Assembly (NCBI RefSeq): GCF_030463535.1
Contig: NC_132893.1
Span: 23,478,782 to 23,542,781, forward strand
Origin: Salminus brasiliensis
Taxonomy: Eukaryota; Chordata; Actinopteri; Characiformes; Bryconidae
Direction of reading: 5' to 3'
DNA: 64,000 nt
The stretch's first letter is position 1, and every line of letters starts with the position of its first letter. This document shows, in pieces, positions 6,224 to 60,253 of the stretch. The notes beneath the pieces were generated by a model. The model had not been told where the DNA came from and did not search any database. It saw nothing but the letters and a program-made list of their open reading frames with translations. A program made the position numbers and the translations under genes.

Positions 6224-9200
6224 ATGTCAGTGATAGGCGAGGAGCGCGTGCGTGGCGGCCTGTTTAAGGACATTAGCGCAGAAGATGAAGAGACTCAACC
6301 CACTGAAATCGAGAGTTTGTGCATGAACTGTTACGAGAACGTGAGTGAAAGCTGATCTCTCTGCTAGCTGCCACATATGTATTAATAATCATCATTGTAC
6401 ATGCTTGGATGGACTACTCAGCAAACACAAAACAGGGTCACAACGATGCATGCTGTCTCAAAAAGATCTGTCTAACCTCAAAAAGATCTGTCTAACCTCA
6501 AAAAGATCTGTCTAACCTTGTCTATTATGTATGGTTGCCATAAAGGATCATGACTGCCAGTTAAGTTCTATACTAAACATAATTCATGTTTGTGTAAGAT
6601 TACATTTATATGGGGTCTTGAAGTAATTCTCTATTTCATATGAGCTTCTTATATTGTCACAAAATGTTTATATTTGACTGATTTCTTTTTTCTCTCTTCA
6701 GGGAAGCACACGTCTGCTGTTAACCAAAATCCCTTTCTTCAGAGAAATCATCATCAGTTCCTTTACATGTCCTCACTGCCACTGGACCAACACAGAAATA
6801 CAGTCTGCAGGTCGTATTCAAGAGCAGGGCGTCTCCTATACCCTCAACATAAAGTGCAAAGAGGTAATGGTGATATTAGGATTGTCCTGTCTCTCAGCAC
6901 ATAGTCAGAAGTACCTGGACCCCTGTGTCGTATTGCAGGAACATGCTCCATGATGTTTCCTTGGGAATAACATTAGTGTAGAGCAGGTGTTTAGAGCCCC
7001 AGTGACCGCATGGCTGCATGTTTACTCCTGCAGCACTGCAGCAGTGACCTCTTTAACTACAGCTTCATGGTATATAAGATTAAGACTGTATTGCTAGCAT
7101 GATACATCTGACTAGAAAGAGGTCTGTGTTGATTTGTAGTTTAGTTACTGTTGTGTTTTTTTTTTGTGTGTGTGTGTGTACACACCATTTCTAAGCTTTG
7201 TGTGTGTGTTCTCAGGATATGAACCGTGAGGTTGTAAAGACAGACAGTGCCACTACCAGAATCCCAGAGTTAGACTTTGAAATCCCTGCGTTCACACAGA
7301 AGGGCTGTGAGTATTACTGCAGCATGGCAAGCCTGAGTGACTGAACACCAAGGATGCAGTTCTATAAAGCCATTTGGGTTTTAATTTTTGATAATGCACA
7401 GTTACTTTATTATTGAAAGAGGTTTATCATGTTTGTCAAACTTAAGTTGTTTTTACCTATAAACATCTGTGTCAGGTGCTTTCTGTGTCAGAACATGTTC
7501 TGTGTGATTTAGGCAGGTGACAATGCATGACCCACTGTGATTTCTCTGGAAAAATGCCTGCCCTATTCACACAGGGGCCCACTCTGATATTACCTTTGCA
7601 CTCGGGTGCTGGTTGGGGGAGATGGTTCGCACATTTGCGTTCATACATACAATTCCTCCGGGTAGTGTCTGGAAAAGTTCTGTGTTACTTACTGTATGTG
7701 TCTGAAAGGAGCACAGCATGCAGACTCTTTTGTAGCCAGCTTGAATCATTTCTATTCAATTCATTATGGGCAAATCCCATGGATAATTTCCTTTTTTTTT
7801 TTCATTCATTTAGTGGAATTCATTTGTTCATTTATCTGCATCTGTGCGCCAAAGCAATAATAGATCTAACCCTCTCATCACATGCTGTTTCTTATTCCTC
7901 CAAACATACCTTTGATGGTTGTGGTCAACATGTTTCATTATTCCTGCATCAGTACAGCAGTTGATGCAAAATGTTTTGCATACTTTAACTTCTGTGATGC
8001 TGCTAAGATAGGGTCTTCTTCTGTCAGATCATGTTTGTACAAGCAAAGCTGCACAGTAGAACGGTGCAGCACCCATCCTGTGTTTGCTAACTCTTCCTTC
8101 GGGAGCTTTGCTGTCAGAGCGGGATTTGGTTTGCCCACCTCGCCAACAATTAATCATTTCTCTTCAAGTTTTTTTTGTTCTTCCTGATCTTCATTTAGTC
8201 TTAGTTAGTAACATTTCGAAGAGTGTAAACATTCTAAGAGGGCCCTCAAGCACATGCTGATTGCATATTTTTCTATATGTCTTTTGTCAATTACAAAGTA
8301 ACTGTGCATTAACATTTTCAAAAAACATTTTAAATATTTTTCCACCTCAAAAATAGAGAATATATATTATTCACAAACATTTGCATATCAACAAATTATT
8401 TTAAATGCATGTGTTCATTAAGAGTAATAAAGTATGGCTTACTTTAATATCAGAGAGTTACAGTTATCTGTTAATTGAAGCATTTACTTTTTTTCAGCAC
8501 TGTCTACTATTGAGGGGCTTCTCGACCGAGCAGTTGCAGGATTAGAACAAGAGCAACCAATTAGACGAGTAAGTGCTTCTCGCTTTTGTCTAATGTTTTG
8601 TGTCGAGCTATTCAAATCTAAATTGAGATTTTATGTTCTACAGATTTGAGATTGTTTTATTGTACTACTTGAACTACATGTCCAAATGTTTGTGGACACC
8701 CCAATGAATGCATTCAGCTACTTTAATTTACTGCAAATGCACACACAGCTCGTCCAGTCCCTATAGAGCACTGCCAATAGAATGGGTCTAGAGCAGGTGA
8801 ACATAAAACTATTGGCACCTTGCCTAATGCCAGGTGTGACCTAGAGCGGTTTAAAGCCACCCCCAGCATTAAGCAGTGGAACGTTTGGGTTGAGGTAAGG
8901 TGCTGATCATATTACACTAATGCTCTTGTTGCAAAATGCAATCAAATCTTCACAGCAGTGCTCCACAGTTTGGCAGAAAACAATTCCTGTACAATAGACA
9001 GTTATGCCAACTGTTTGGATAAAACAATGAATGAGCAGGTATCCCAATAATGTTGTGCATATAGTGTAAGTAACATTCATTGTGTAGAACTAGATGATCA
9101 GATAATGCAGCGTCTTTGATTGCCAATACCCCAGTTAAAGCTGCTTTTTTCATATTGCTGGGACTTTCCTCATTCTTTGACTTTGTATCACAGGCAACTG

Positions 9201-12089
9201 ATCCAGATGTAGCAGACAAAATAGACCAATTTATTCAGAGACTCAAAAGGTTGAAAGATGTGGAGGAAGAATTCACACTGGTAAAACTACCAATGCTAAA
9301 ACTATTATTTGAATTTGAAGTTCTGGACATTTGTGTTATTCACGTCTACGTGTATGTTAACTTTTTGCTTTTCGTTTTTTTGTGCATCATCACAGATAAT
9401 TGACGATCCGTCAGGGAACAGTTTTATTGAGAATCCGTGTGCACCACAAAAGGACCAAGCACTGTCTGTCTCCCACTACAACCGAACACCTGAGCAAAAT
9501 GCTTCCCTCGGAATAGATGTGAGAATCTCCCAGCTACTTTAAGTTGCTTACACACATGTGCGAATGCATGTGCACACACAGCTTGTCTAGTCCATGTAAA
9601 AAAATTGCTGGCAATAGATTAAGACACTGAAGCAGATAAACATAAACCTATTGGCACCATGCCTAATGCCAGGTGTGGGCTATAGGGGTATAAACGGTGG
9701 AACTGTTCTCTCTGGAATGATGGTGCTCCATCCAATATTTTTGGGATGGGTTGTAGAGTTGGGGGTGAGATGGGGTGGTACTCCTCCAATATCCTGACCT
9801 CACTAACACTTGCTGAATGCGATCTAATCTTCACAGCAATGCTTCACAATCTAGCAGGAAGCCTTCCCTGGACAGTAGAGACTTAAACAAACAAGGCAGA
9901 AAAAAAAACTTGGCCCTAATTTCAGGAAAAAAGAAAGAAAGACTGAGCAGGTGTCCCAATACTTTTGTCCAAATAGCATATGGACAATGACATGACCCAC
10001 AAATGTTCACAATATGATTCCTCAGTGGTGGAGACCTACAGTTTGTAAAACATTGTTTTAGATAATCTGACAGCTGTGCTATGTGGCATTTAACAGGTAT
10101 ATATCGGTTTATTTAATAACAACTATTATTATTGTTATTTATTTTATTTATTTATTATTATTTTATTTGATTTTAATTTCCCTGATATTTAACAAACCTG
10201 GTAAATGCTTCACCCTCTTCACCCTCTCAAGCTTTTCTCCACTTTCTATTTCAGGGCACAGAGCCAGATCCACAGGAAAAGCCTGCCAATGACTTAGAGA
10301 GCATGAGGAATGAAGTACTTGTGTTTGACACCAACTGTCCTGAGTGCAATGCTCCAGCCTCAACAAACATGAAGCTTGTCCGTATCCTTTTATGTCTGAA
10401 AGCACAGCCGATTGTTCTTACTGTAAATGCACAGTCATTTCTGCCTGTGGCATTGCTTTGTATTCTAGGGGACCTTTCATTGCTGCTGGCATGGTTAGAA
10501 GTGTTTCCTTTACTGTTAATCAGAAATCCCACATTTCAAGGAAGTCATTATCATGGCTACCAACTGTGACAGCTGTGGACATCGAACTAACGAGGTCAGA
10601 AATGATATTAGCCTATTATTGTAAAATAAAATAAAATCTCCCAGTGTATTGTAGATCCTATAGCTGCCCAATGGTAAACAACGCCAGCTCTTTTGCCATC
10701 ACTCCAAAGCTAAGCAAGTTTCTTTGTGGTGGGGGGGGGCAGTATATGATCCGTATATGAACTAGGGGAAATTAAAATGTGTAGTATTTCTCAGCACCTT
10801 TAATGTGTTATACAGAAGATGCCTGAATGTATTGTGCATTAAAGTTGTGCCTTTCATTTAACAGGTGAAATCAGGGGGTGCCACAGAGGAGCTGGGAACC
10901 AAAATTACTCTGCATGTTACAGACCCCTCAGACATGTCCAGAGACCTGCTGAAGGTATTCTTCGTTTAGGCTTTTCTTCGTCTTCTCTAAACTGTGGTGG
11001 TTTTGTAAGTGTATTGTTTTGTAAATAACTTCCACAGGAAAGTCAATAGTACATGGACAATTTGTGTGGAAACTGTAATTCTGCTAATGCAGTGACACAA
11101 ATTTCTTATAGTACTATCTTGCTATTGGACCAGATAAGGAATAGACAGCTTAACCTATTTTATTGCTTTCTGCTTGTGTGAATGTAGTAAGTAGTGATGT
11201 TTCCATATGATCATCGCTGGCCACAGTAGTTGAGCATGTGAGTGTCTATCCCTTGCAGGAATACTAGCCAGAATTTTTTTTCCATGTATTTTTAAAAAGG
11301 TCTGAATTATTTCACTATTAGGATGTAAACAAAGTCCTCTGGAGTGTTTAGAGGGAAATGCTGCGTTGTAGAGAACAGTCCTGTTTCAGAAATCTTTGTG
11401 TGTGTGAGACAGTCGGAGACGTGTAGTGTGCTGATCCCGGAGGTCGAGTTTGAGTTGGGTATGGCAGCATTAGGAGGAAAGTTCACCACTCTTGAGGGCC
11501 TTCTGAAGGATATTAAAGAACTGGTGAGTGTCGGCAACGACTTCGTTCTCACTCATTTTTGCATGATTGGAGCTACACCAATCACACTAAGACCTATTGC
11601 AATCCATGGCAATTTCAGGTGGTTATGAAAAACCCGTTCACTTGTGGAGACAGCTCTACCACGGACACATCAGAGAAACTGGAGCAATTTGGGAAGAAGA
11701 TTGACAAGGTATGAAATTTATTGTTCTGTTAACAACCCAAGGTTTGATGACATGTACCCAAGCCTAGTAATCACTGCTAGATCATCAATGATCATCAATC
11801 ATTCTGTGAATCTTCTGAAGATTATGGCAGGAGAAATGGATGTCCACGTTGTCTTGGACGATCCAGCAGGAAACAGTTACCTGCAGGTAAATTCAGTTTA
11901 CATATTCAACTTAAAAATCAGCCTACAAATGTTTGTGGCTAAATACCTGCTTGCTCTCTGTAGAACATTTACGCCCCAGATCCCGACCCCGAGATGAAGA
12001 TTGAGAAGTACACACGGACGTTTGAGCAGAATGAGGACTTAGGACTGAACGACATGAAAACAGAAGGTTACGGAGAGGTCCAGAGTTAG
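6224..12089 (+). CDS. zpr1: Zinc finger protein ZPR1, 13 exons
   Basis: Conserved eukaryotic ZPR1 protein with two C4 zinc fingers. In the family it binds eEF1A and the SMN complex and shuttles between cytoplasm and nucleus. Exons: 6224-6340, 6702-6863, 7216-7306, 8498-8568, 9194-9280, 9396-9518, 10255-10381, 10524-10594, 10865-10954, 11413-11523, 11619-11708, 11821-11886, 11964-12089, giving 443 residues (human 459). The tandem architecture is clear. The first half has the finger CMNCYENG...CPHCHW and the motif [14 protein letters not shown]. The second half has the finger CPECNAPA...[11 protein letters not shown] and [13 protein letters not shown]. The C-terminus is [16 protein letters not shown]. 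Intron 7 (10382-10523) has a U12-type donor. Introns 4 and 6 have been invaded by MITE copies. Confidence 0.96.
6458..6518. repeat. Triplicated 20-bp tandem repeat in zpr1 intron 1
   Basis: Three head-to-tail copies of a 20-bp unit containing AAAAAGATCTGTCTAACC, essentially identical. It lies in intron 1 and has no coding role. Confidence 0.85.
8674..9068 (+). mobile_element. MITE family copy 1 (zpr1 intron 4), near full length
   Basis: About 395 bp. The left end reads CCAAATGTTTGTGGACACCC. The right end reads ATCCCAATAATG...ATATAGTGTA, which is related to the inverted left end. The internal landmarks shared by all copies are GCAAATGCACACACAGC, TTGGCACC.TGCCTAATGCCAGG, and the late block CTCAC/CTAATGCTCTTGTTGC. 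There is no coding capacity, so it is a non-autonomous DNA transposon. Terminal TA dinucleotides suggest a Tc1/mariner-type source, which is an inference. Confidence 0.75.
9527..9985 (+). mobile_element. MITE family copy 2 (zpr1 intron 6)
   Basis: Same family as the element at 8674: CAGCTACTTTAAGTTGC, GCACACACAGCTTGTCTAG, TTGGCACCATGCCTAATGCC, ATGATGGTGCTCCATCCAAT and the right end GTGTCCCAATACTTTTGTCC. Its left terminus appears truncated. Confidence 0.75.
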
Positions 12090-15539: not shown

Positions 15540-15740
15540 ATGACACAGATGTGCAAATGCACACAAACAGCTTGTCTAGTCACTGTAGGAAAGCATTTCC
15601 AATACAATGGGGCAGACAAACAGATAAACATGATGCTAGTGGTGCCATGCCTAATGCCAGGTGTAGGCTAAAGGGGTATAAAGCCCCCCAAGCATTCAGC
15701 TGTGGTCCAGAGGAACTGTGTTCTTTGGAACGATGGAGAT
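15540..15740 (+). mobile_element. MITE family copy 3 (partial)
   Basis: The internal part of the family seen at 8674: GACACAGATGTGCAAATGCACACA, CATGCCTAATGCCAGG, GGGGTATAAAGCCCCCC and the TCTTTGGAACGATGG block. Both termini are missing. Confidence 0.7.
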
Positions 15741-16906: not shown

Positions 16907-17324
16907 ACCAAATGTTTGTGGACACCTCTAATGAATGCATTCAGCTACTTTAAGTTGTTCCAATTGCTGACACAGATGTGCAAATGCACACACACCACTT
17001 AGACCCTGTAGAGAAGTACTGCCAAAAGAATATGACATGAACCAATTGGCACCATGCCGAATGCCAAGCATGGGCTAGAGGGGTATACAGCCACCCCCCC
17101 AGCACTGAGCTGTGGAGCAGTGGAACTGTTCTCTGGAATGATGGTGCTCCATCCAATACTTTTGGGATGAGTTGCACCTTTATCACCGAATGCAATCAAA
17201 TCCTCACAGCAATGCTCCAAATTCTTATAGAAAGCTTTCCCTTTCCTAAAAAGTTTTTAATGCCCTTCATTTAGGAAAAAAACAAGAAATGAGCTGGTGT
17301 CCCAATACTTTTGTCTATATAGTG
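16907..17324 (+). mobile_element. MITE family copy 4, near full length
   Basis: It begins CCAAATGTTTGTGGACACC and ends GTGTCCCAATACTTTTGTC...TATAGTGT, with all internal landmarks in order. At about 418 bp it is a good reference copy. Confidence 0.8.
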
Positions 17325-17625
17325 TGTATCCTCTCAGTCATTGTGTAATGTTTTATGCTGTGGTATGAAGTGGTGAAGTAACTGTGAAATAAAGGCATCA
17401 AGCAAATGTTAATGTGTGAACAGAAAACACAAAACCAGCTGTGGTGCCAAAGGAGAAGCCACAAGTAATGCCATCATTACTTGTAAGTGTATCAGACGGG
17501 TAATGCTAGTTGCTGCGGTTGCTTGTCTTGCCCTCCAGGCTTTCTCCTTCTCTCTCATAACCCCTCGTTTTGTTTCTGCTGACCTCTCACACTCTTTCAC
17601 ACATGTTTGGTTGAAAGGAGGCCAG

Positions 17626-18061: not shown

Positions 18062-18255
18062 GTCTAGTCCTTGTCTAATGCCAGGCATAGGCTAGAGGTG
18101 TATAAAGCCCCTCAGCATTGAGCTGTGTAGCAGTGGAACTATGTTCTCTGGAATGATGGTGCTCCATCCAATACTTTTGGGATAAGTTGAGGATAAGGTT
18201 GGGTGGTAATCATCCAACATCCTGATCTCATTAATGCTCCTGTTGCTGGATGCAA
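18062..18255 (+). mobile_element. MITE family copy 5 (partial)
   Basis: Internal part of the same family: CTAATGCCAGGCATAGG, GTATAAAGCCC, ATGATGGTGCTCCATCCAATAC and CTGATCTCATTAATGCTCCTG. It lies in intron 1 of the ZPLD1-like gene. Confidence 0.7.
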
Positions 18256-18356
18256 TCACATCCTCTCAGAAAGGAACAGTAGGAACAGTTTCTCCAACAA
18301 AAACAGGAGAAACTTAAACTCTTTTTTAATAGCTTTGGTTTAGAAGTACATTGAAT

Positions 18357-36315: not shown

Positions 36316-39300
36316 ATGGCTGCGTTCTTGCAGTGGAGACGGTTCGTGTTTTTCGATAAAGAAACGGTGAAGGACCCGAATGAGAATGCGAAGAACTTCA
36401 CTCTGCCTCATGGCATATCGGCCTGTGATTCAGGCCGGGGACACATCGTTCTCGGAGATATCCTTACAATGCAGAGCTGCTGTTTGTTGTTGAGGCTAGT
36501 AGCATGTAGCTAGTGGTTATGACACAGTGAGTGTTTATCAGCAAATGTCAGTCTTGTAGTGAATTGAATGATTAACACGTTGCTGTCCGAATATTTTGCA
36601 CGTGATTGGTGAAGTTATATTATTACAATCATATGAAGAAATCTGTGTAGAGACATTTTAGCAAGTCATTAACCTGAACAAGGGATCTGTAGTTTAGCCC
36701 AAGTCCTGTCAGGTGGATGAAGCTGTGAATATTTGATTTGTGATTTCCTTCACTCTTGTTGTGCACATATGGATGGTCAGATTTGGTTTTTAAGTCGCTC
36801 TCTGCAGCTGACCTCCTTCCAGGCCTACAAGCTGCGGGTGACACACCTGTACCAGCTGAAGCAGCACAGCATTCTGGTTTCTGTAGGACAAGACGAGCAT
36901 GGCATTAACCCACTGGTAAGGACTGCTGTTTCGATGGTACAGTATCTGATGATGGTATTATTGAAATGCCTTTTTGTGTGAGACTGGGCCCTCCTTGCTT
37001 CTATTTCAGATACGTGTTTGGTATAGTATATAAACATTTCATCACTGTCATGCAAAAAACCCTGTTTCCAAAATGGCAATTCACAACAGAAAGTCTTAAA
37101 AAAACTCTACCCTGCTTTTGTTGGAGTAACTGCCTTCACTGTCCTCACCTCACTCCCTCCCCAACTCATCCCAAAAGTTTTGGATGATTCACCATAATTC
37201 CAGAGAATACGGTTCCACTGCTTCACAGCTCAATGCTAGAGGGCTTTATACCCCTCTAGCCCATGCCTGGCATTAGGCATGCTGTCAATAGGTTCATGTT
37301 TATTTCCTCCAGAGTCTCCTATTATATTGGTAGTACATACCTACAGGGACTAGACAAGCTGTGTGTGTGCTTTTGCACATATGTGTCAGTAATAGGTTAT
37401 CTTAAAGTACTAAATGCATTCATTAGAAAAAGTGTTTACAAACGTTCTGACATACAGTGTATACAGTCTAAAAGGCACAGTAACACCAAACAGCCTGTTT
37501 ACTTATAATACATACACATATTATACATAGAGGTTGGAAAAGGCATAGAAAATGAGCTACAATTGTTTTTGTTGCATTGAAGCTGAAGACAAAATGGTGA
37601 AACGTTCTGCTGTAAAGAACACTGGCCATCTGTTCTGTGTGTGTTTTATTTGTACACCAGGTTAAGGTATGGAACACGGATAAGAGGGACAGTGGCAGTC
37701 CTCTGTGCACCCGCATATTCCCAGCTATTCCTGGAAACAAACCCACAGAAGTATCCTGTCTTAGTGTACATGAGAACCTGAACTTCATGGCCATAGGTAC
37801 AATCTCTTGCTCTCTTTTTCTGTAAGTCTCTCTGTGTCAGTATTGCAGAATGTTAATGTATGTCAGTATAATCAGTCATTACTATCATATAAGCTGTTTG
37901 AAAGCAAACACTTCGTTCATATTTCTGTAAAATGAATAAAAAAAAAAGAAAAGAAAAACAAGTTACTTTAGTAGTTCATAAAGTCGTGGTCTTTTTTCAG
38001 GCTTTACAGATGGCAGTGTAGTTCTGACTAAAGGCGACATTACCAGAGACAGACACAGTAAAACACTAACTCTCCACGAAGGAAACTGCCCGGTCACTGG
38101 TCTGGCTTTCCGGCAAGCAGGAAAAGTCACACACCTGTTTGTAGCCACTCTTGAGAAAGTGCAGGTATAGTGTAATTATTTTATTATGCCAATGTTTCAG
38201 CATCAACACTTCTCATTTACCAATGATAAATGTAGAGAGAGTGATCTTGTATTCAGTGCTGCCTTTCTTGGTTTATTTTGTTCTTAGTGTTACACATTGT
38301 CAGTTAAAGAGTACCCCCGTTTGGAGCTGGACACACACGGTTGCGCCCTACGCTGTTCTGCCCTCACTGACCCCTCCCAGGACTCTCAGTTCATTGTAGC
38401 AGGAGATGACTGTGTGTATCTGTACCAACCTGATGAAAGGGGGCCTTGCTTTGCCTTTGATGGACATAAGATCCTGGCCCACTGGCACCGGGGCTACTTA
38501 CTGTTGCTTACACGAGACACCAAGTCACCTAACAAGTAAGAGTCTCTCTTATCGTACAACTAAAGTGAAGAGCATGGTGGTCTGCAAGTATGTGACACTT
38601 GCTAGTCTTGCCTGTGAATCTGGTCAAAAATGGACATTCAGTTATTATTCTGTAAATTAAATAGCAAAACATATATACCAATATTTGTTAGGACATGCCA
38701 TGAGACGATAATAGATGCTTTTGCGTGTTCCTCAGAGCCTTAAAGCTGAAGCATCAGTGTTGGATAGAAAACAGTAGCTAGTTCCCCTTATTATAGATAT
38801 AGTAGCTAATTAACTAAATACTTACAACAAATTGTAATTTGCTCTGTATGGTTTTTTTATTGTATGTTTTTAGATATAAGACAGGCATTTAATATACAGG
38901 CATCTAAACATTAGCAGCCTCCTAACATGTCATGTATAATTATTGGGAAAGTCCTTATCACTGACTTATCATTTTTTGATAAAAGTAATAGATTATAGGC
39001 TACTGAAGACAATATGAATAGGAGCAGTAAAAAAAAATCTACCATATTTTCCCCTCTATATCAGATATAACCTGTTATCAGTGTGGTCCCATAAGTAGGA
39101 TCTTCAACAGTTGTATCTGAAAATGACAGACCCCACTACAAACATTCAAAATGCAGTGGTGGATTCTTGGTTTCTTGTTCCTTTGCAAAAAGTTGGAAAT
39201 TGCTATCAAATTTCAAATTCAATTTTAGTCGTGTAATGAAATTAGACTTTGATTGGAAACTTGATTTTTGTCTCTTTCTGTCTCTCCTTATGACTCAGGC

Positions 39301-44100: not shown

Positions 44101-45624
44101 ACAGATTGTAACCTCTTCATTTCCTTATTTGCTTTAATATTGGTTGCCATATTGTACCAAAATCATTTCATCTATCACACAGAATGTGGCTTAATTGTGC
44201 CATATAAAGTACACAGCTGAAATAGCTGATCCATGCTTTTTATTATTACATTTTTACTATTGTAGTATTAGTGACGTAATTCAAAGTACAACAGTACAGA
44301 AGGTTCGTTTTTGATAAAAACCCTGTAGGCACTGCAATCACGTATTCATACCAAACACCTAGATATAAGAATGCGGTCCGCTTTGTATCCTAGCTTTCAG
44401 TATATTACTAACAATCTGAATTTGACAAGTCAGTAATTGTCAGTAAATGTCAGTAGTCAGACATTGCAATGAAAGAAATAAAATGAAATTAATTAATTGT
44501 GCTCTCCAAGATGCCTGAGCATTGCATGCAGTCTGTCCCACCTCAGTATCATTTTGGCTCCCTCTGTTGTTTTATATGGGTTTATTGCAAAGCCATTTCA
44601 TGAGCCTTTCTTCAGCTTTCTTCTCTGTGAACCTCAACTAAACTTCCCCAAATAAAGTGACATAATTCGCAGCACTTGTAGAGAATATGCAGGTTTATTT
44701 TTTATTTTATTTTATTATTTATTTATTTATTTATTTTAAGCCCACTGTGGAAAGTAACATTCTTATAAACCCATTTTCTTCATTTTAATCTTCTTTGTGT
44801 AGAAGTGATTTAGATTAGTGTGTGGGTGTGGGTGTGGGTGTTTTTAATTGTTTGACATTTTTACAAAATGACTATCAAATGTTTCCATTCCTTTTTTTCT
44901 TTTTTTGTTACCCCCACAGTGCAAAGATTTTCCAGAAGACAAAGTGTAGCATGTGTAACAGCCCTCTGGAACTGCCATCAGTGCATTTCCTGTGTGGGCA
45001 CTCTTTCCATCAGCACTGCTTTGAGAGCTATGCTGAGAGTGAAGCTGAGTGCCCCACCTGCACACCAGAGAACAGGAAGGTGAAAGACATGCTGCGAGCA
45101 CAGGACCAGAAACGCGACTTGCACGATCATTTCAACAGACAGGTACGGAAAACAAGGAATCTCCCCATAACCTTAAACCATGCATTACTTTCAACACATA
45201 CAGTAGCTTTACTGGTAATGGCCTTTAAAATTAAACTGCTGGCTGTAAATAGTCAGGTGTGGGTAGAGTTTCTTACACCATTATCATATAGAGGTTTGAG
45301 TACTGTAATGAAGTTATGACTCAAAAAAGTAGCCTAGCAACTAAGAAAATAAATGTAACTATGTACTACTCATTTCTGTTGAAGTTGAATAATGCTTGAA
45401 CTAACTATTGAACCAAAATGCCTGCAGTAATTAACGTGAAACCCTGTCGTTCGCAGTTGAAGAGTTCTAATGACGGTTTCTCAGTGGTGGCGGATTACTT
45501 CGGCCGTGGCGTTTTCAATAAACTCACACTGATAACAGATGCTCCAGGTGGTAAGGCTGGGCCTGGGAGTTTGGAAGCTGATCTACAGAGAGACTTGCTC
45601 ATTCACACCAAGAGAAATGTCTGA
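36316..45624 (+). CDS. vps11: VPS11, core subunit of CORVET/HOPS, 16 exons
   Basis: Vacuolar protein sorting 11, a scaffold subunit shared by the CORVET and HOPS tethering complexes for endosome and lysosome fusion. Exons: 36316-36457, 36767-36915, 37661-37796, 38001-38164, 38288-38535, 39299-39500, 39690-39841, 39930-40116, 40371-40514, 40729-40926 (or -40917), 41497-41658, 41818-41951, 42581-42783, 43654-43825, 44920-45142, 45457-45624; 927 residues (924 with the alternative exon-10 donor), against 941 in human. N-terminal beta-propeller region (MAAFLQWRRFVFFDKE, THLYQLKQH, DTHGCALRCSAL). Clathrin-type helical repeats (DAQRIHNLTAYLQALHRQSL, ILMHH-like LMHHVPE). Coiled coil in exon 14. RING-H2 finger at about 805-845 (KCSMCN...HFLCGHSFHQHC...CPTC). 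Conserved tail FGRGVFNKLTL. Intron 1 (36458-36766) is U12-type AT-AC. Head to head with hyou1, as I recall for human HYOU1-VPS11. Confidence 0.97.
37155..37462 (-). mobile_element. MITE family copy 7 (vps11 intron 2, minus orientation)
   Basis: The family in reverse: CTCATCCCAAAAGTTTTGG, TTTATACCCCTCTAGCCCATGCC, TGCCTGGCATTAGGCATG, ACTAGACAAGCTGTGTG and the terminal GTGTTTACAAACG. Confidence 0.75.
43263..43360. repeat. Interspersed repeat fragment in vps11 intron 13
   Basis: The string with CCTGCACATTTTAGTGTC followed by AACACCTGGTCCAGTTATTCAA resembles a dispersed fish repeat known to me by pattern. No coding capacity. Confidence 0.4.
43373..43471. repeat. 52-bp tandem duplication in vps11 intron 13
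   Basis: Two nearly identical copies of a 52-bp unit starting TGAATGTAGTGTTTTAGAGC. Confidence 0.85.
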
Positions 45625-46156
45625 GAAACAGGTCCTCATCAACATCGTGGTTGTGAAATTCAGAGCTACAGACTGGGTTCAGTTTTTATTGCGCTGAGGA
45701 GTTCATAGTATCATATTCTGTGAGGCCTGATCCTGATTCTCTCCTGCTTGTACTCCTAGGTCAGTGGGCACATTCTTAAAAAATCATATGTGTCCTGCAA
45801 AATGTTCCCATGTCATGAAGAAATATATTGATCCCTGAAAAGCAAGTTAATAGAACATCCCATACAGCTACTTGCAACCTTAACTGCTTTTATATGTCTG
45901 TAAATTAACTGTGAATATAACACATGTATGAATGTTGTCGTGTGCTTTTCTTTTTTTTTTTTTTTTTGCAGTTTGCAATGATCAAGTGCTTGATCTGTGA
46001 TTCAGTGGAAGCGAAATTAGGCAATGAATGAATGTATTTTCAAATTTACAGCATTAATTAATACAAAACATCTATTGGCCTAAATGTGCATATGTCCAAC
46101 ACTATGCCCAGTACCTGCTCTGTAAAATGTCATTGTTACACTAACAACAACATAAT

Positions 46157-46162
46157 AATAAA
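46157..46162 (+). terminator. vps11: Candidate vps11 poly(A) signal
   Basis: AATAAA about 530 bases after the vps11 stop and about 690 bases before the ift46 promoter inverted repeat. Confidence 0.55.
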
Positions 46163-46845
46163 GAACTACAACACAGCAAACAAGAGTATTACTTGTTAAT
46201 CTATGGCTACATTTAGTTTAATAAAAATGCTACAACTGATTAGTTACATGTAACTACATACAGGGCTGTGAGGCTTTGTATGCTTGTATCTGGAAGGAAC
46301 ATTACACGGAGTCTCGGAAGTGTCAAGGTAAAAAACTATATTTAGTGACCTAATTCGTTCCCTTAATGAAATAAATTGTCATGGCTATAGGTCATAGGTA
46401 ATTACATGGGTTTAATATGTTAGATAAAGCAAAATCAGCGCTAACCGGTGTTCTGCCGATTTGTGCTACCCATCGATATGCCCTACTTAGCGGCTCTGCG
46501 CATGCGCTGAACCACAATTTTGAATGTTTTCATGTGTTCCTCGTGATAATTTTTTTTCGTGAGTTTTTCTCAGGTGCATCCTACAATCTGAGCTTACTGG
46601 TAATATTGGTTTGAGTTTTACAAAAATATACATTATTTTTTTAAGTGCCTCAATTACCTGATGTAGATAATGATTTATGCTACCTAAATATCTTTCCTAT
46701 ACTTCTGCTGGTAGCAAGCATTCTCGGATCTAACTCTTTTTAGCATATAGACATAGCCTATCCTAGGATATTAATTCACGCTGGTTCACCTATAAATACA
46801 CACTACGGTAGCATGCTTCGACAAGGTAGCACAAATCGACAGAAC

Positions 46846-47231
46846 ACCGGACCTAAAAACATAGCCACCTTCTGTCGCTCAAACCTCTCCATGTAAGCAG
46901 GCGGTGTTCTGTTACCTTGGAAACCGAAACCGGTTACATTTACAATTCCACATATTGTCGGTAAGAGGTTAATTAAACTAAACTGACTCTTAATATAATT
47001 TGTGTTTGCAACTAAAACATAATTGCCAAGTCTGTGACACCATACAAGACGGTCTCAGATTTCTTTAAAAAGCTCCAGTCGTGCGCCAACCATGGACCAA
47101 TGGTACCAACGCGCCCGTCAGCCGTGATCTCCAGGAGCGTCGCGAGATTCGGTTTCCAGGGTAACAGCACACCGCCTGCTTACATGGAGAGCTTTGAGCG
47201 ACAGAAGGTAGCTAATGTTTTTAGCTCCGGT
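46846..47231. repeat. ift46: Inverted duplication of the ift46 promoter and first exon
   Basis: Arm A (46846-46928), read on the minus strand, matches arm B (47148-47231), read on the plus strand, over about 84 positions with six differences including one indel. Each arm contains an X-box-like 14-mer (GTTTCC-AA/AG-GGTAAC), the string CACCGCCTGCTTACATGGAG with an ATG, eight codons (MERFERQK in arm A, MESFERQK in arm B) and a GT after AAG. Arm B is the ift46 first exon. Arm A is its mirror copy, 219 bp away, pointing toward vps11. Confidence 0.9.
47152..47165 (+). promoter_or_regulatory. ift46: X-box (RFX-type) motif of ift46
   Basis: GTTTCCAGGGTAAC differs at one position from the X-box consensus GTTNCC-AT-GGNAAC. 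It lies 19 bases before the ATG at 47184. X-boxes bound by RFX factors are typical of ciliary genes. The mirror copy (46911-46924) also differs at one position. Confidence 0.7.
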
Positions 47232-49174
47232 TAGCGCAAATATTCACCGCGGCTGACATATTAAAGCCACGTAAATATATATAACGCTGCTCTGCGTTGC
47301 ACTGAGTTCATTCGAGCTGTCTGCGGAGAGAAATAGCTTTAGCTATTCCAACTTTCTTTTAGTTTCATGCTTGATCGGTCAGGCTAACGTTAGCTTGGTA
47401 GCTAGCTAGCTGCATTGACTACATAGCGATTGATATAGCTAGCTAGCTAACGTCTAAGTAAGGTTGCCCAGATTAAAGCCGTTTTGTTAGACTGTTAATA
47501 AATACTTTTTACTTAAGACGTTTCGTTCAGTAGTAGAAGTATCAGTGGGTAGTTTCCTAGCTAGCTAGCACTATATATCTCAACTGTTGTTCTGTTGGAT
47601 CTGGCGTGTCCACTCTGCTGTAATTAAGCATTTTGCAAATTATATCCATGTTAGGATATTAGTTAGTCAATGCTGGGGGCTTTCTAATCGTCACGCATGG
47701 AATTGGGCATGGGGCCAATAGGTTCCAACACGCCAATATGTTTACCTGCTCTAGATAGTCCTATTCTATTGGCAATACTTCGCTACAAGGACTAGACAAG
47801 ATATGTGTGCAGTTGCACATCGCTGACATGGATTAACTGTATGGTTGCACCTGTGTTGTGTTGTTCTCAGACTCAGCTCATAAACAACCAGCCGTTTGAT
47901 GAGACACTGGACATCAACGATTCAGAAGAGGTCGCCAGTTTGTACACACCAACTCCGCGTCAAACAGGTGATGCCCTCGCTGCTTTTTACTCTTTTACAA
48001 CTTTTATACAATGGCTACATTGTCTTGTGATTTCAGTCTTTAGGAACAGGAGCAGACAACAACTAAATACCATGGCCAATAACAGCAGTGACGAATATGA
48101 AGAAGATACCAAGGTAAATGCATCATTTACCATCCCAAACCTCATTAATGCAGGGTGTGAACTTCTGATCTTGTAAATTGCACTGACTTTTTTCACATTT
48201 AATTGCAGAAAAAGAAAGAGCCACCAGCCAGTCCAAGAAGAGCTAGTGATAATAACGAGGAAGAAGAGGAGGAAGACGACGACGACGATGATGATGACGA
48301 CGACTGTGATGAAACTGAATCTGATGAAGATGATGGAGAGCCAGGTTCAGCTCCTGAAGGGTAGGATCTGTGCTGAAGCTTACAGGCACTGTAAACATGA
48401 ATCAGACAGAAAACACATTTTTTAAATGATCTTACTGTTTGGTAATTAGCTATTCTTTAAAGCAATCTAAAAGAAGTGCAACTAACTCTCATATCATCTT
48501 ACAAGTTTACAAAATAGAGAAATAACATTTTATGGCCATAATATCATGGATACAATTCTCAGTGCTTACTGGGACAGACTAATATTAGCTTGCTAGCAAG
48601 CTGCATTGATTGCTTAGCAATTGATCTAAGGTCTAAAAAGGTAATGCAGATTAAAGCTGTTTTATTAGGTGGTTATTGAATACTTTTGACACTTAAGATG
48701 TTTTGTTTGGTTTTTGAAGTATCAATATATACCTCAAATATATATTTTTTGTTTTTTCTCGAATTTCTAAAAGTCAAACATTATTGTTTTAAAAGGAATG
48801 TTTTAAGCTAAATTGTCCAATGTTAAATATCTTTGAAAAAGTATGGCAACACCTAGGAGTGTGCTATGCCCTAAATAAAGGGAAATTCACGAATGAGGCA
48901 GATAATAAAACACTGATTACCTTCTTAAGACCTCATTGATATGCCAGAAACTTATTAGAAGAAAATAATTCAAAATATTTTTTTTATGGCCCTATGAATG
49001 TTGGACAGTAGTAGTAAATTTTACAGGAGAATGTCATGGTATCTGTCCATGAGGTACGGTTTACCCATAAGGTAAGGTTTAGTTCTAACAAATCCCTTAA
49101 CCCAATAGAAATGTGTATAGGGACCTAAAAAGTTAAAAATATTATATATTATATATATACATTATATGTATATA

Positions 49175-57900: not shown

Positions 57901-60253
57901 TTGGCCAACCAAACATATTGTAGGGAGCTTTGGTGGTGAGCTATTCCTTTAAAGAAACACAGAATCAGTTTTAAAATGTAAGCTTACGACTAAATGGCGC
58001 ATGACAATGCTAGGTTTCTAACCGCATGTGATGTATCATTTAACAGGAAGTGTTACTGAATCTATTTTAAAGTTAACACATGATTAATAACAGAATTATT
58101 TTCCCTTTACAATGTTGACAGGCTTCTGTAGAAGAAATTCAGCTAACAGAAGGAAAGGTAATTCTTTCTCATAAAGATTCAGAGCTGTTTCATTTGTAAA
58201 TATTGTTCCTGTCACGCAAAAACCTTGTATCCCATTTTCTCTTTTTCAGTTCTTGATATAATCTGAATCTGGCACTTGTTCTTTACATTGTGTCAACATT
58301 TCACAATAAATAGACCAACAGACAAATTGAATCTTTGAGTCAAATCAACTCATAAGAATTGAGAACTGTAGTGACTGGCCCACGCAAGCTTAAAAACAGC
58401 ACACTCAAAAAATGAGACTCTACTGATGGTTGATTTAATCTTTTTTTCTCATGTTGATGTTTCTCAACATGTCCAGTAACTTAGTCAGCTGTGCTGTTGC
58501 AATAATACACACTAATCTTTTGGGTTTCTTTGTGCAATACATCCTCTTTGAGTAAAACTTCCCTATTGGCTCCTGGGACCATTATTTGCATATTAGAAGT
58601 GTCCTCTCCCATCACTCACCAGCAGTTGCATTGCTTTCCACCCAGGCTACATTCTATTTGGTGTTATATTTTACGTTTTGTTTACCTGCCTGGCCTCAGT
58701 ATTGTAGACTGTAGAAGCACATTACCATTAGCTGTTGCTGAGTGTGAATCACATTTCAGAATCAGAATCTGACTTTATTGGCCAAGTATGCTTACACATA
58801 CAGGGCTCACAGTGCACGATAACTGACATTACAGAAGTAACAAACACATCCAACCCACACACACACGCACAGACACACCTGTAAACTTAACATGTGCAGA
58901 GTTTTATATTTAAAGTAAAGTGCTAAGTGCAGCAGTAAAGAACAGTGCAGACTGGATTCAATAGATATAAATATGGAGAACAGAGGAGTCACTGGTTGAG
59001 ACGGTAGTACAGATTGTTCTAAAACACTATCAGATAAATAAAGTGCAGTACAGAGAAAGAAGAGTGAGAGAACATCTGGATATGATGTATGTATGTAGTA
59101 GACTGTATTCAGAATGTAGTGTTGTAATGTTCAGCTGTTCATGAGTGTGATGGTGATTCAATTAAAGTATTAGGAAATATAATGTTTTATACCTTACAAG
59201 TTAAGTGTTTTCTGGGCTTTGATTATACAGCAAATTGTAAGCACAGATTTTTTTTTCTGTATTTATTTAATACAAATGAATGTGTTTAAGTTGTTTTTAA
59301 CAAATTGAATTAATTCTCTGGTAGGCATTACTTAAATCTTTGGTATCACTTTACTTGGATGGTCAATTATAGATGCCTCATAGATGCTCACCTGACATTC
59401 AGCTTAAATTCAACTGAATATCTGTTCAATGCTCTCTTAACTTTACCCTTGAATCAACCATAAATCCCAACCCTAACCATAAGCTAAACCTTAAATCTAA
59501 CACTAACCTAACCTAAACGGCTATGGTTAAGGTTAGGGTTAGGGTTAGGGTTAGGTGTAGGGTTACATTCAATAGACATTCATTTACATTACATTACATC
59601 TCTTTACAAGAGGTTTTTTATTTTATATTAGTTGAATGTCAAGTGAACATCTATGAGGCATCTACAATGGACCATCCAAATAAAGTGTTACCAAGTATTT
59701 TAAGGAAAGTCACTTGCCTCAAACTCTTTAACACTATCAACTTAGTTTCAACTGAGTTGGAATAAAACCTTTTTACATTGACTTTTCACTGTGATGCTTT
59801 TTTTTTTTAGGTCGGAGAAACGCAAATGGTATCGCAAAGGAAGGTATGAAGACTACACATTTTTCTATACGTCATGTAGGTTATTTAAATTACCCTTTGT
59901 GAAGTACTCTGACTTTGTGTGGCTTTTTACAGAACCGGTATATGATGAGCCCAACCACCCACAGGTAAAAGCACCAACATTTGACATCAGAGGGCAGAAC
60001 CATTTACATTACACATCAGTTTAATTCTCCCCTAGCTAAGAGTATGTCAGTGTTGTGCACACATATTGTCTGTGCTTTTCTGCAGGAACGTGATACTCCA
60101 AGAGTGGCATCTTTACCATATGTCTACACAGATTATATAAAGCCGAAAGCTCAGCGGGCCTCGGATGAAAGGCACCAGGATGAAGAGTCTGGCTACTCCA
60201 CCATTGAAGAAGTCAGAACAACATTGTCTTTTCAGTCCTCCATGAGCCAATAA
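54922..60253 (+). CDS. Two-domain Ig-superfamily transmembrane receptor with cytoplasmic ITIM, 8 exons
   Basis: Exons: 54922-54973, 55835-56152, 56279-56533, 56816-56941, 58122-58157, 59811-59843, 59933-59964, 60086-60253; 339 residues, all phases closing. Signal peptide at 1-18. Ig domain 1 at about 19-123 has a B-strand Cys (HICHEH) and Trp (VEWAKY), but the F-strand reads AVYEKKV without Cys; it also has a Cys cluster, SCFCNCC. Ig domain 2 at about 124-208 is a clean C2-type domain (LRCEV, LHWLRD, SDWGRYTCQVSN). Several N-glycosylation sequons. Transmembrane segment at about 228-248. The tail contains PVYDEP (SH2-type motif) and SGYSTI (ITIM consensus, Tyr at about 321). The one V-like plus one C2 layout recalls the CD2/SLAM and HEPACAM groups; I cannot name the orthologue. 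Immune or adhesion signalling is an inference. Confidence 0.85.
58760..59160. repeat. Interspersed repeat fragment in the Ig-receptor intron 5
   Basis: It starts near CAGAATCTGACTTTATTGGCC, a string I recognise as common in fish genomes at retroelement or SINE-like ends. No ORF is visible. Exact family and boundaries are uncertain. Confidence 0.4.
59342..59692. mobile_element. Palindromic MITE with TTAGGG-like core (Ig-receptor intron 5)
   Basis: The left arm GGTATCACTTTACTTGGATG...GATGCCTCATAGATG and the right arm (inverted GGTAACACTTTATTTGGATG...GATGCCTCATAGATG) match over about 60 bases, giving a 351-bp foldback element. The interior carries CCCTAACC-type repeats on one side and four TTAGGG-like units (59526-59555) on the other, so the core is also palindromic. 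Confidence 0.8.

What the first reader, a model, noticed from the sequence alone, without database searches (positions are those of the whole stretch)
46846..47231. Mirror-image duplication of the ift46 promoter and first exon
Two arms of 83 and 84 bp, about 93% identical, lie inverted 219 bp apart. Each carries an X-box-like motif, an ATG, eight codons of the ift46 N-terminus and a splice donor. The mirror copy would drive transcription on the minus strand across the vps11 3' end, producing an antisense transcript, or would let the DNA/RNA form a hairpin. The coding part (MERFERQK versus MESFERQK) and the GT after AAG are preserved, so the copy is recent or constrained. Inverted duplication of a ciliary promoter plus coding exon is unusual.
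Basis: seen in the sequence. Interest (0 to 1): 0.7.

Follow-up and report, generated by a model that had tools for sequence, protein, structure and literature searches.

The report
Old mirror copy of ift46 start
The start of a cilia gene, including a likely docking site for the regulators that switch cilia genes on, has been copied in mirror image just upstream of itself; the copy looks old, has since been struck by a small jumping element, and most likely only adds a second docking site.

Summary
The inverted repeat is real and very unlikely to be an artefact. Arms 46846-46928 (-) and 47148-47231 (+), 92.9% identical, hold an X-box, an ATG, eight ift46 codons and a GT donor. Closing that site extends the homology to about 138 bp per arm.

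The arms have two histories: 5 of 89 columns differ inside, 16 of 47 outside; the step (47231-47244) lies at the element's insertion point, not the exon edge. So the duplication looks old, its inner part later homogenised by arm-to-arm conversion, or else held by selection. A published zebrafish primer shares codon 3 with the mirror copy, not the gene.

Both X-boxes are intact, the only two strict hits in 64 kb, but CCAAT and TCGCGAGA lie beside the gene's arm only. Best reading: a template-switch inverted duplication that left a second RFX site, the antisense exon being a by-product. Antisense transcription is untested; the genome search did not complete.

The parts
47148..47285 (+). Arm B: the gene's own arm (X-box, 5' UTR, ift46 exon 1, donor, start of intron 1)
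46851..46928 (-). Arm A, inner part: mirror copy of X-box, 5' UTR, exon 1, donor and the first 18 nt of the intron
46391..46448 (-). Arm A, outer part, displaced by the nested element; exact for CCGGTTAGCGC (46438-46448), then a poorly matching stretch, then 33 nt at 79%
   Evidence: 0 of 2000 shuffles reach the 33-nt score; 20 of 59460 random pairs reach it, 2 of them near the same diagonal
46449..46846 (.). Nested 398-bp element with 22-bp terminal inverted repeats (21 of 22 identical), starting TGT and ending ACA
46445..46448 (.). CCGG target-site duplication, left copy; arm B has a single CCGG at 47227-47230 (the empty site)
46847..46850 (.). CCGG target-site duplication, right copy
46911..46924 (+). 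X-box of arm A, GTTACCTTGGAAAC
47152..47165 (-). X-box of arm B, GTTACCCTGGAAAC
47184..47207 (+). ift46 coding exon 1, MESFERQK, donor GT at 47208
   Evidence: would join in phase to TQLINNQPFDE after the AG at about 47870 (read by eye)
46869..46892 (-). Mirror coding stretch MERFERQK, donor GT (minus strand) at 46867-46868
46929..47147 (.). Spacer; its right part 47061-47147 is CpG-rich (57% GC, 9 CpG) with CCAAT (47097-47101) and TCGCGAGA (47140-47147)
45412..45624 (+). Open frame holding the last vps11 coding exon; its stop codon ends at 45624

Best explanation
About 138 bp around the ift46 start (X-box, 5' UTR, first coding exon, start of intron 1) was copied in inverted orientation about 220 bp upstream by a replication template switch or fold-back repair event. 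A 398-bp element that looks like a non-autonomous DNA transposon later landed on a CCGG in the mirror copy. The inner 89 bp were then homogenised at least once by arm-to-arm conversion, the tract stopping at the element, while the outer part kept diverging. The working effect, if any, is a second X-box about 240 bp upstream of the gene's own; an X-box is an imperfect inverted repeat, so inversion should not spoil it. The mirrored ATG, codons and donor are passengers. Shown: the structure, duplication before element, two divergence classes. Inferred: template switching, conversion, RFX binding.
For: Inverted arms. Empty-site alignment across the nested element and significance of the outer part. 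Change point at 47237, 2-lnL interval 47231-47244, 3 of 5000 permutations as good; the exon edge 47207 is 4.1 lnL worse. Two strict X-boxes in 64 kb, one per arm. Literature, passages only: template switching between inverted-repeat arms homogenises them in yeast (PMC8604942); great-ape short-range template switches reach 128 nt, median 12 (PMC7954356); human X-boxes of proven RFX targets are best found within 500 bp either side of the TSS (PMC5838959); C. elegans ciliary genes often have one or more X-boxes (PMC2873420); the Drosophila IFT46 homologue CG15161 is a dRFX target (PMC2375033); a zebrafish 2.4-kb ift46 upstream fragment with two putative RFX2 sites drives expression in ciliated cells (PMC10285392).
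Against: The outer part is short; with only the clean 33 nt counted the contrast is weaker (5 of 89 against 7 of 33, p = 0.017). A break within 7 nt of the insertion point has roughly a one-in-eight chance on its own (my estimate, no call). The yeast study looked only at spacers up to 70 bp and arms of 7-16 bp. The degenerate X-box consensus is common, and an X-box upstream of an ATG did not predict RFX control in flies (PMC2375033). In Xenopus, Ift46 was in the FoxJ1 set only, not the Rfx2 set (PMC3889689). No expression or binding data and no other genome were seen.
Confidence: 0.5

Rival explanations
1. The same old inverted duplication, but the inner 89 bp are alike because selection held both copies (a true bipartite RFX promoter), with no conversion.
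For: All 12 core X-box positions unchanged (chance 0.007 to 0.057 at the outer rates); five of five inner CpGs are kept in both arms while three of three outer ones are absent from arm A, two of those in the poorly aligned stretch; the 400-base window 46801-47200 has a CpG o/e of 1.02 against a window median of 0.32.
Against: The inner part of arm A on its own has only 3 CpGs and an o/e of 0.73; the high value comes mainly from the spacer. The conserved stretch runs evenly through UTR, codons and 24 nt of intron that an X-box function does not need; the best break is 30 nt beyond the exon end.
Confidence: 0.25
2. The mirror copy is a working divergent promoter and first exon that makes an antisense spliced transcript across the vps11 3' end.
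For: X-box, ATG, eight codons and donor all intact on the minus strand.
Against: The CpG-rich part with CCAAT and TCGCGAGA lies about 130-220 bp away, beside arm B only; the nested element begins 20 nt past the mirror donor GT (46846 against 46867-46868); apart from a stretch of an interspersed repeat (47690-47829) no other inverted match of the ift46 region was found in the window at E 1e-5, which could miss short exons; the mirror frame 46803-47054 has no Pfam match up to E = 1.
Confidence: 0.12
3. The repeat acts as RNA: a transcript through both arms folds into a long hairpin and feeds small RNAs or blocks translation.
For: A transcript of 46840-47240 would fold at -188.6 kcal/mol, z -16.7, 0 of 100 shuffles as good.
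Against: A plus-strand transcript would have to start left of arm A; three AATAAA signals that could end vps11 lie before it, at 46157, 46220 and 46370; no Rfam family at gathering scores.
Confidence: 0.04
4. Assembly or library artefact (fold-back chimera).
For: Fold-back chimeras are a known artefact (recalled); no reads were available to check.
Against: The arms differ by 6% inside and 21-34% outside, have an indel, and one alone holds an element with a target duplication.
Confidence: 0.01

Closest known systems
Inverted copies made by short-range replication template switching / fold-back repair (PMC7954356, passages; PMC10622511, search listing only)
   Same: Local inverted copy of nearby DNA, net gain of sequence
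   Different: About 138 bp, slightly above the 128-nt maximum of the great-ape gold-standard set; looks old and diverged; carries a promoter part and a coding exon
Arm homogenisation of inverted repeats by template switching or gene conversion (PMC8604942, passages; PMC1803023, abstract and Discussion)
   Same: Inverted arms that stay alike; in the nematode case at gene starts
   Different: No phylogeny here to show concerted change; one gene with a partial first exon, not a pair of whole paralogues
Ciliary promoters with X-boxes bound by RFX factors (PMC2375033, PMC5838959, passages)
   Same: GTTACC-NN-GGAAAC close to the ATG of an IFT-B gene
   Different: Two copies flanking the presumed core promoter, one made by inverted duplication
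Ginger1-type DNA transposons (PMC2836005, passages)
   Same: 4-bp CCGG target duplication; ends begin TGT
   Different: Fifth base is C, not a purine (TGTNR); terminal repeats 22 bp, not about 40-270; 398 bp, too short for the 2.6-7 kb autonomous elements

Membership tests
RFX-bound X-box promoter | Match to the degenerate consensus RYYNYY N1-3 RRNRAC (PMC2375033) | tested here: met
   GTTACC TT GGAAAC and GTTACC CT GGAAAC; the consensus alone is not predictive
RFX-bound X-box promoter | RFX binding and RFX-dependent expression | not testable with these tools
   no binding or expression data for this species
Template-switch inverted duplication | Local inverted copy of nearby sequence | tested here: met
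Template-switch inverted duplication | Ancestral state without the copy in a relative | not tested
   The genome search 'own' unanswered 14 times; no relative's genome was reachable
Arm-to-arm conversion | Concerted change in both arms against an outgroup | tested here: inconclusive
   Only 20 bases of zebrafish: T-T at bases 11-12 in both arms against C-C in zebrafish; codon 3 G shared by arm A and zebrafish, C in arm B
Ginger1 transposon | CCGG or CCGT target duplication | tested here: met
   CCGG on both sides, single CCGG in arm B
Ginger1 transposon | TGTNR ends | tested here: not met
   TGTTC
Ginger1 transposon | Terminal repeats of about 40-270 bp | tested here: not met
   22 bp
Divergent promoter with antisense first exon | Minus-strand transcription from arm A | not testable with these tools
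   no RNA data

The most novel reading that the evidence does not exclude
A ciliary promoter that has carried a mirrored X-box and first exon over long times, kept in step by arm-to-arm conversion, so that the RFX sites flank the core promoter and fire both ways; the two putative RFX2 sites reported upstream of zebrafish ift46 could be the same ancient pair.
Probability: 0.1. Interest if true: 0.55.

Novelty: new member of a known kind. Interest (0 to 1): 0.3.

Why it matters
It is a compact case of how a promoter can gain a second copy of a key regulator site in one step through an inverted duplication. An inserted element marks the order of events, and the split in arm identity lets conversion and selection be told apart once relatives are aligned. 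If the pair is shared across fishes it would be a natural test of whether paired X-boxes strengthen ciliary promoters.

Tried and rejected
Artefact: set aside (diverged arms, one-sided element). Foldback transposon made of the arms themselves: set aside, because BLAST of 46400-47300 against the window found only itself, the two arms and the nested element's ends (E up to 0.01), and the element's own ends lie elsewhere. Known RNA: no Rfam match at gathering scores in 45600-48000. Protein from the mirror frame: no Pfam match. Copies of the nested element: only its own two ends in the window at up to 3 mismatches; none in viral contigs (one exact 22-mer, right-end version) or genome contigs (both versions); those are virus and prokaryote collections, so this says little. 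IS481EU elements (PMC10045372, passages) also have TGT...ACA ends and may have 4-bp duplications, but are reported from parabasalids; not pursued. The zebrafish forward primer (23 of its bases) has no match at up to 3 mismatches. A looser X-box pattern gives one further hit at 45329 in the window. Literature: no paper on an inverted duplication at ift46 was seen in searches (open-access library; listings only). Only search 64 named ift46 together with inverted repeats, by an any-two-of-four rule: 1,420 papers, 10 listed, none of the 10 with ift46.

My own error: one search printed the arm-B outer sequence one base late (TAGCGC for TTAGCGC), so its anchored score of 16 (0 of 300 shuffles) is unreliable; the local test in the same call tolerates the shift, and searches use the right start.

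Full report
What is there. The inverted repeat named in the finding is real: 46846-46928 pairs with 47148-47231 inverted, 92.86% over 84 columns with one gap, 219 nt between the arms. Its local score of 136 was not reached in 2942 random inverted 400-base pairs from the same window (best 78). In the repeat finder it is the second longest of 94 inverted pairs of at least 28 nt within 3 kb, 25 of which were shown. The gene names hold: a 184-aa stretch spliced by eye from downstream exons matches IFT46 (PF12317, 1.5e-91; PDB 8bd7_D, 3.1e-63), exons 1-2 faintly resemble the N-terminus of that solved IFT46 chain (E = 0.45), and 45412-45624 holds the VPS11 C-terminus.

A missed element. Between the mirror arm and the rest of its homology lies a 398-bp stretch, 46449-46846, with 22-bp terminal inverted repeats (21 of 22 identical) and a CCGG on each side. 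Arm B has a single CCGG at the matching place, so it is the empty site. The end sequence occurs only at these two places in the window, up to 3 mismatches. CCGG duplications and TGT starts recall Ginger1 elements (PMC2836005, passages), but the TGTNR rule and the repeat length are not met, so I do not file it there.

The full duplication. With the element closed, homology continues: CCGGTTAGCGC is exact, and a collinear 33-nt block is 79% identical. That block's score was reached in 0 of 2000 shuffles and in 20 of 59460 random pairs of real window sequence, most of them simple or interspersed repeats, 2 of the 59460 within 3 of the same diagonal. Each arm is thus about 138 bp: 47148-47285, and 46391-46448 plus 46851-46928.

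Two divergence classes. Of 136 aligned columns 21 differ: 5 of 89 up to 47237 and 16 of 47 beyond; gap columns are not counted. The best change point is 47237 (2-lnL interval 47231-47244); 3 of 5000 permutations did as well. The exon end at 47207 is 4.1 lnL worse. Part of the outer stretch (about 47238-47252) aligns poorly; counting only the clean 33-nt block the contrast is 5 of 89 against 7 of 33, p = 0.017. The step lies at the insertion point of the nested element. The simplest account is an old duplication whose inner arms were later homogenised, with the element as a barrier. Selection on both copies is the main rival; it explains the intact X-boxes and kept CpGs but not the even identity through UTR, codons and intron. 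Template switching between inverted arms is known to homogenise them in yeast (PMC8604942, passages), and maintenance of inverted arms at gene starts has been argued in nematodes (PMC1803023, abstract and Discussion).

Which copy keeps the older state. A published zebrafish ift46 reverse primer over the start codon (PMC10285392, passages) matches arm A with 2 mismatches and arm B with 3 over 20 bases. The extra one is codon 3: AGG in zebrafish and arm A, AGC in the gene. So the gene, not the mirror copy, has probably changed there. This is one site.

What it may do. The two X-boxes are the only strict GTTRCCNNRGNAAC hits in 64 kb; a looser pattern adds one at 45329. The 400-base window 46801-47200 has a CpG o/e of 1.02 (window median 0.32), but arm A's inner part alone has 0.73 with 3 CpGs. 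The CpG-rich core with CCAAT and TCGCGAGA (reading these as NF-Y and BANP-type sites is recalled) is beside arm B only. A second RFX site some 240 bp upstream is the most economical function. For an RFX role: the Drosophila IFT46 homologue CG15161 is listed as a dRFX target (PMC2375033, passages), and a zebrafish 2.4-kb ift46 fragment reported to hold two putative RFX2 sites drives expression in ciliated tissues, with some ectopic muscle expression (PMC10285392). The positions of those two sites are in a figure that I could not see, so a shared origin is only a lead. Against it: Xenopus Ift46 was in the FoxJ1 set and not the Rfx2 set (PMC3889689, passages). An antisense transcript is possible but untested. 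A hairpin RNA is possible only in a transcript through both arms.

Limits. No relative's genome could be seen; the search of the source genome was unanswered in 14 attempts. Age, spread, copy number of the element and any transcription are therefore open.

Noticed in passing
46498-46507: The nested element carries a perfect GCGCATGCGC palindrome, the shape of an NRF1 site (motif recalled), about 690 bp upstream of the ift46 ATG.
   Followed up: no
47368-47544 and 48563-48724: Direct repeat, 71% over 179 columns, downstream of ift46 exon 1; rich in TAGCTAGC.
   Followed up: no
8682-9067, 9544-9839, 15541-15739, 16908-17325, 18069-18272, 37143-37446, 47667-47829: A family of related interspersed repeats in both orientations, about 66-86% alike.
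   Followed up: no
59334-59700: Another inverted repeat, 93-nt arms at 80%, spacer 181 nt, the longest listed in the window.
   Followed up: no
546-783: Inverted repeat of 51-nt arms at 73%, spacer 136 nt, that looks like a small transposable element.
   Followed up: no
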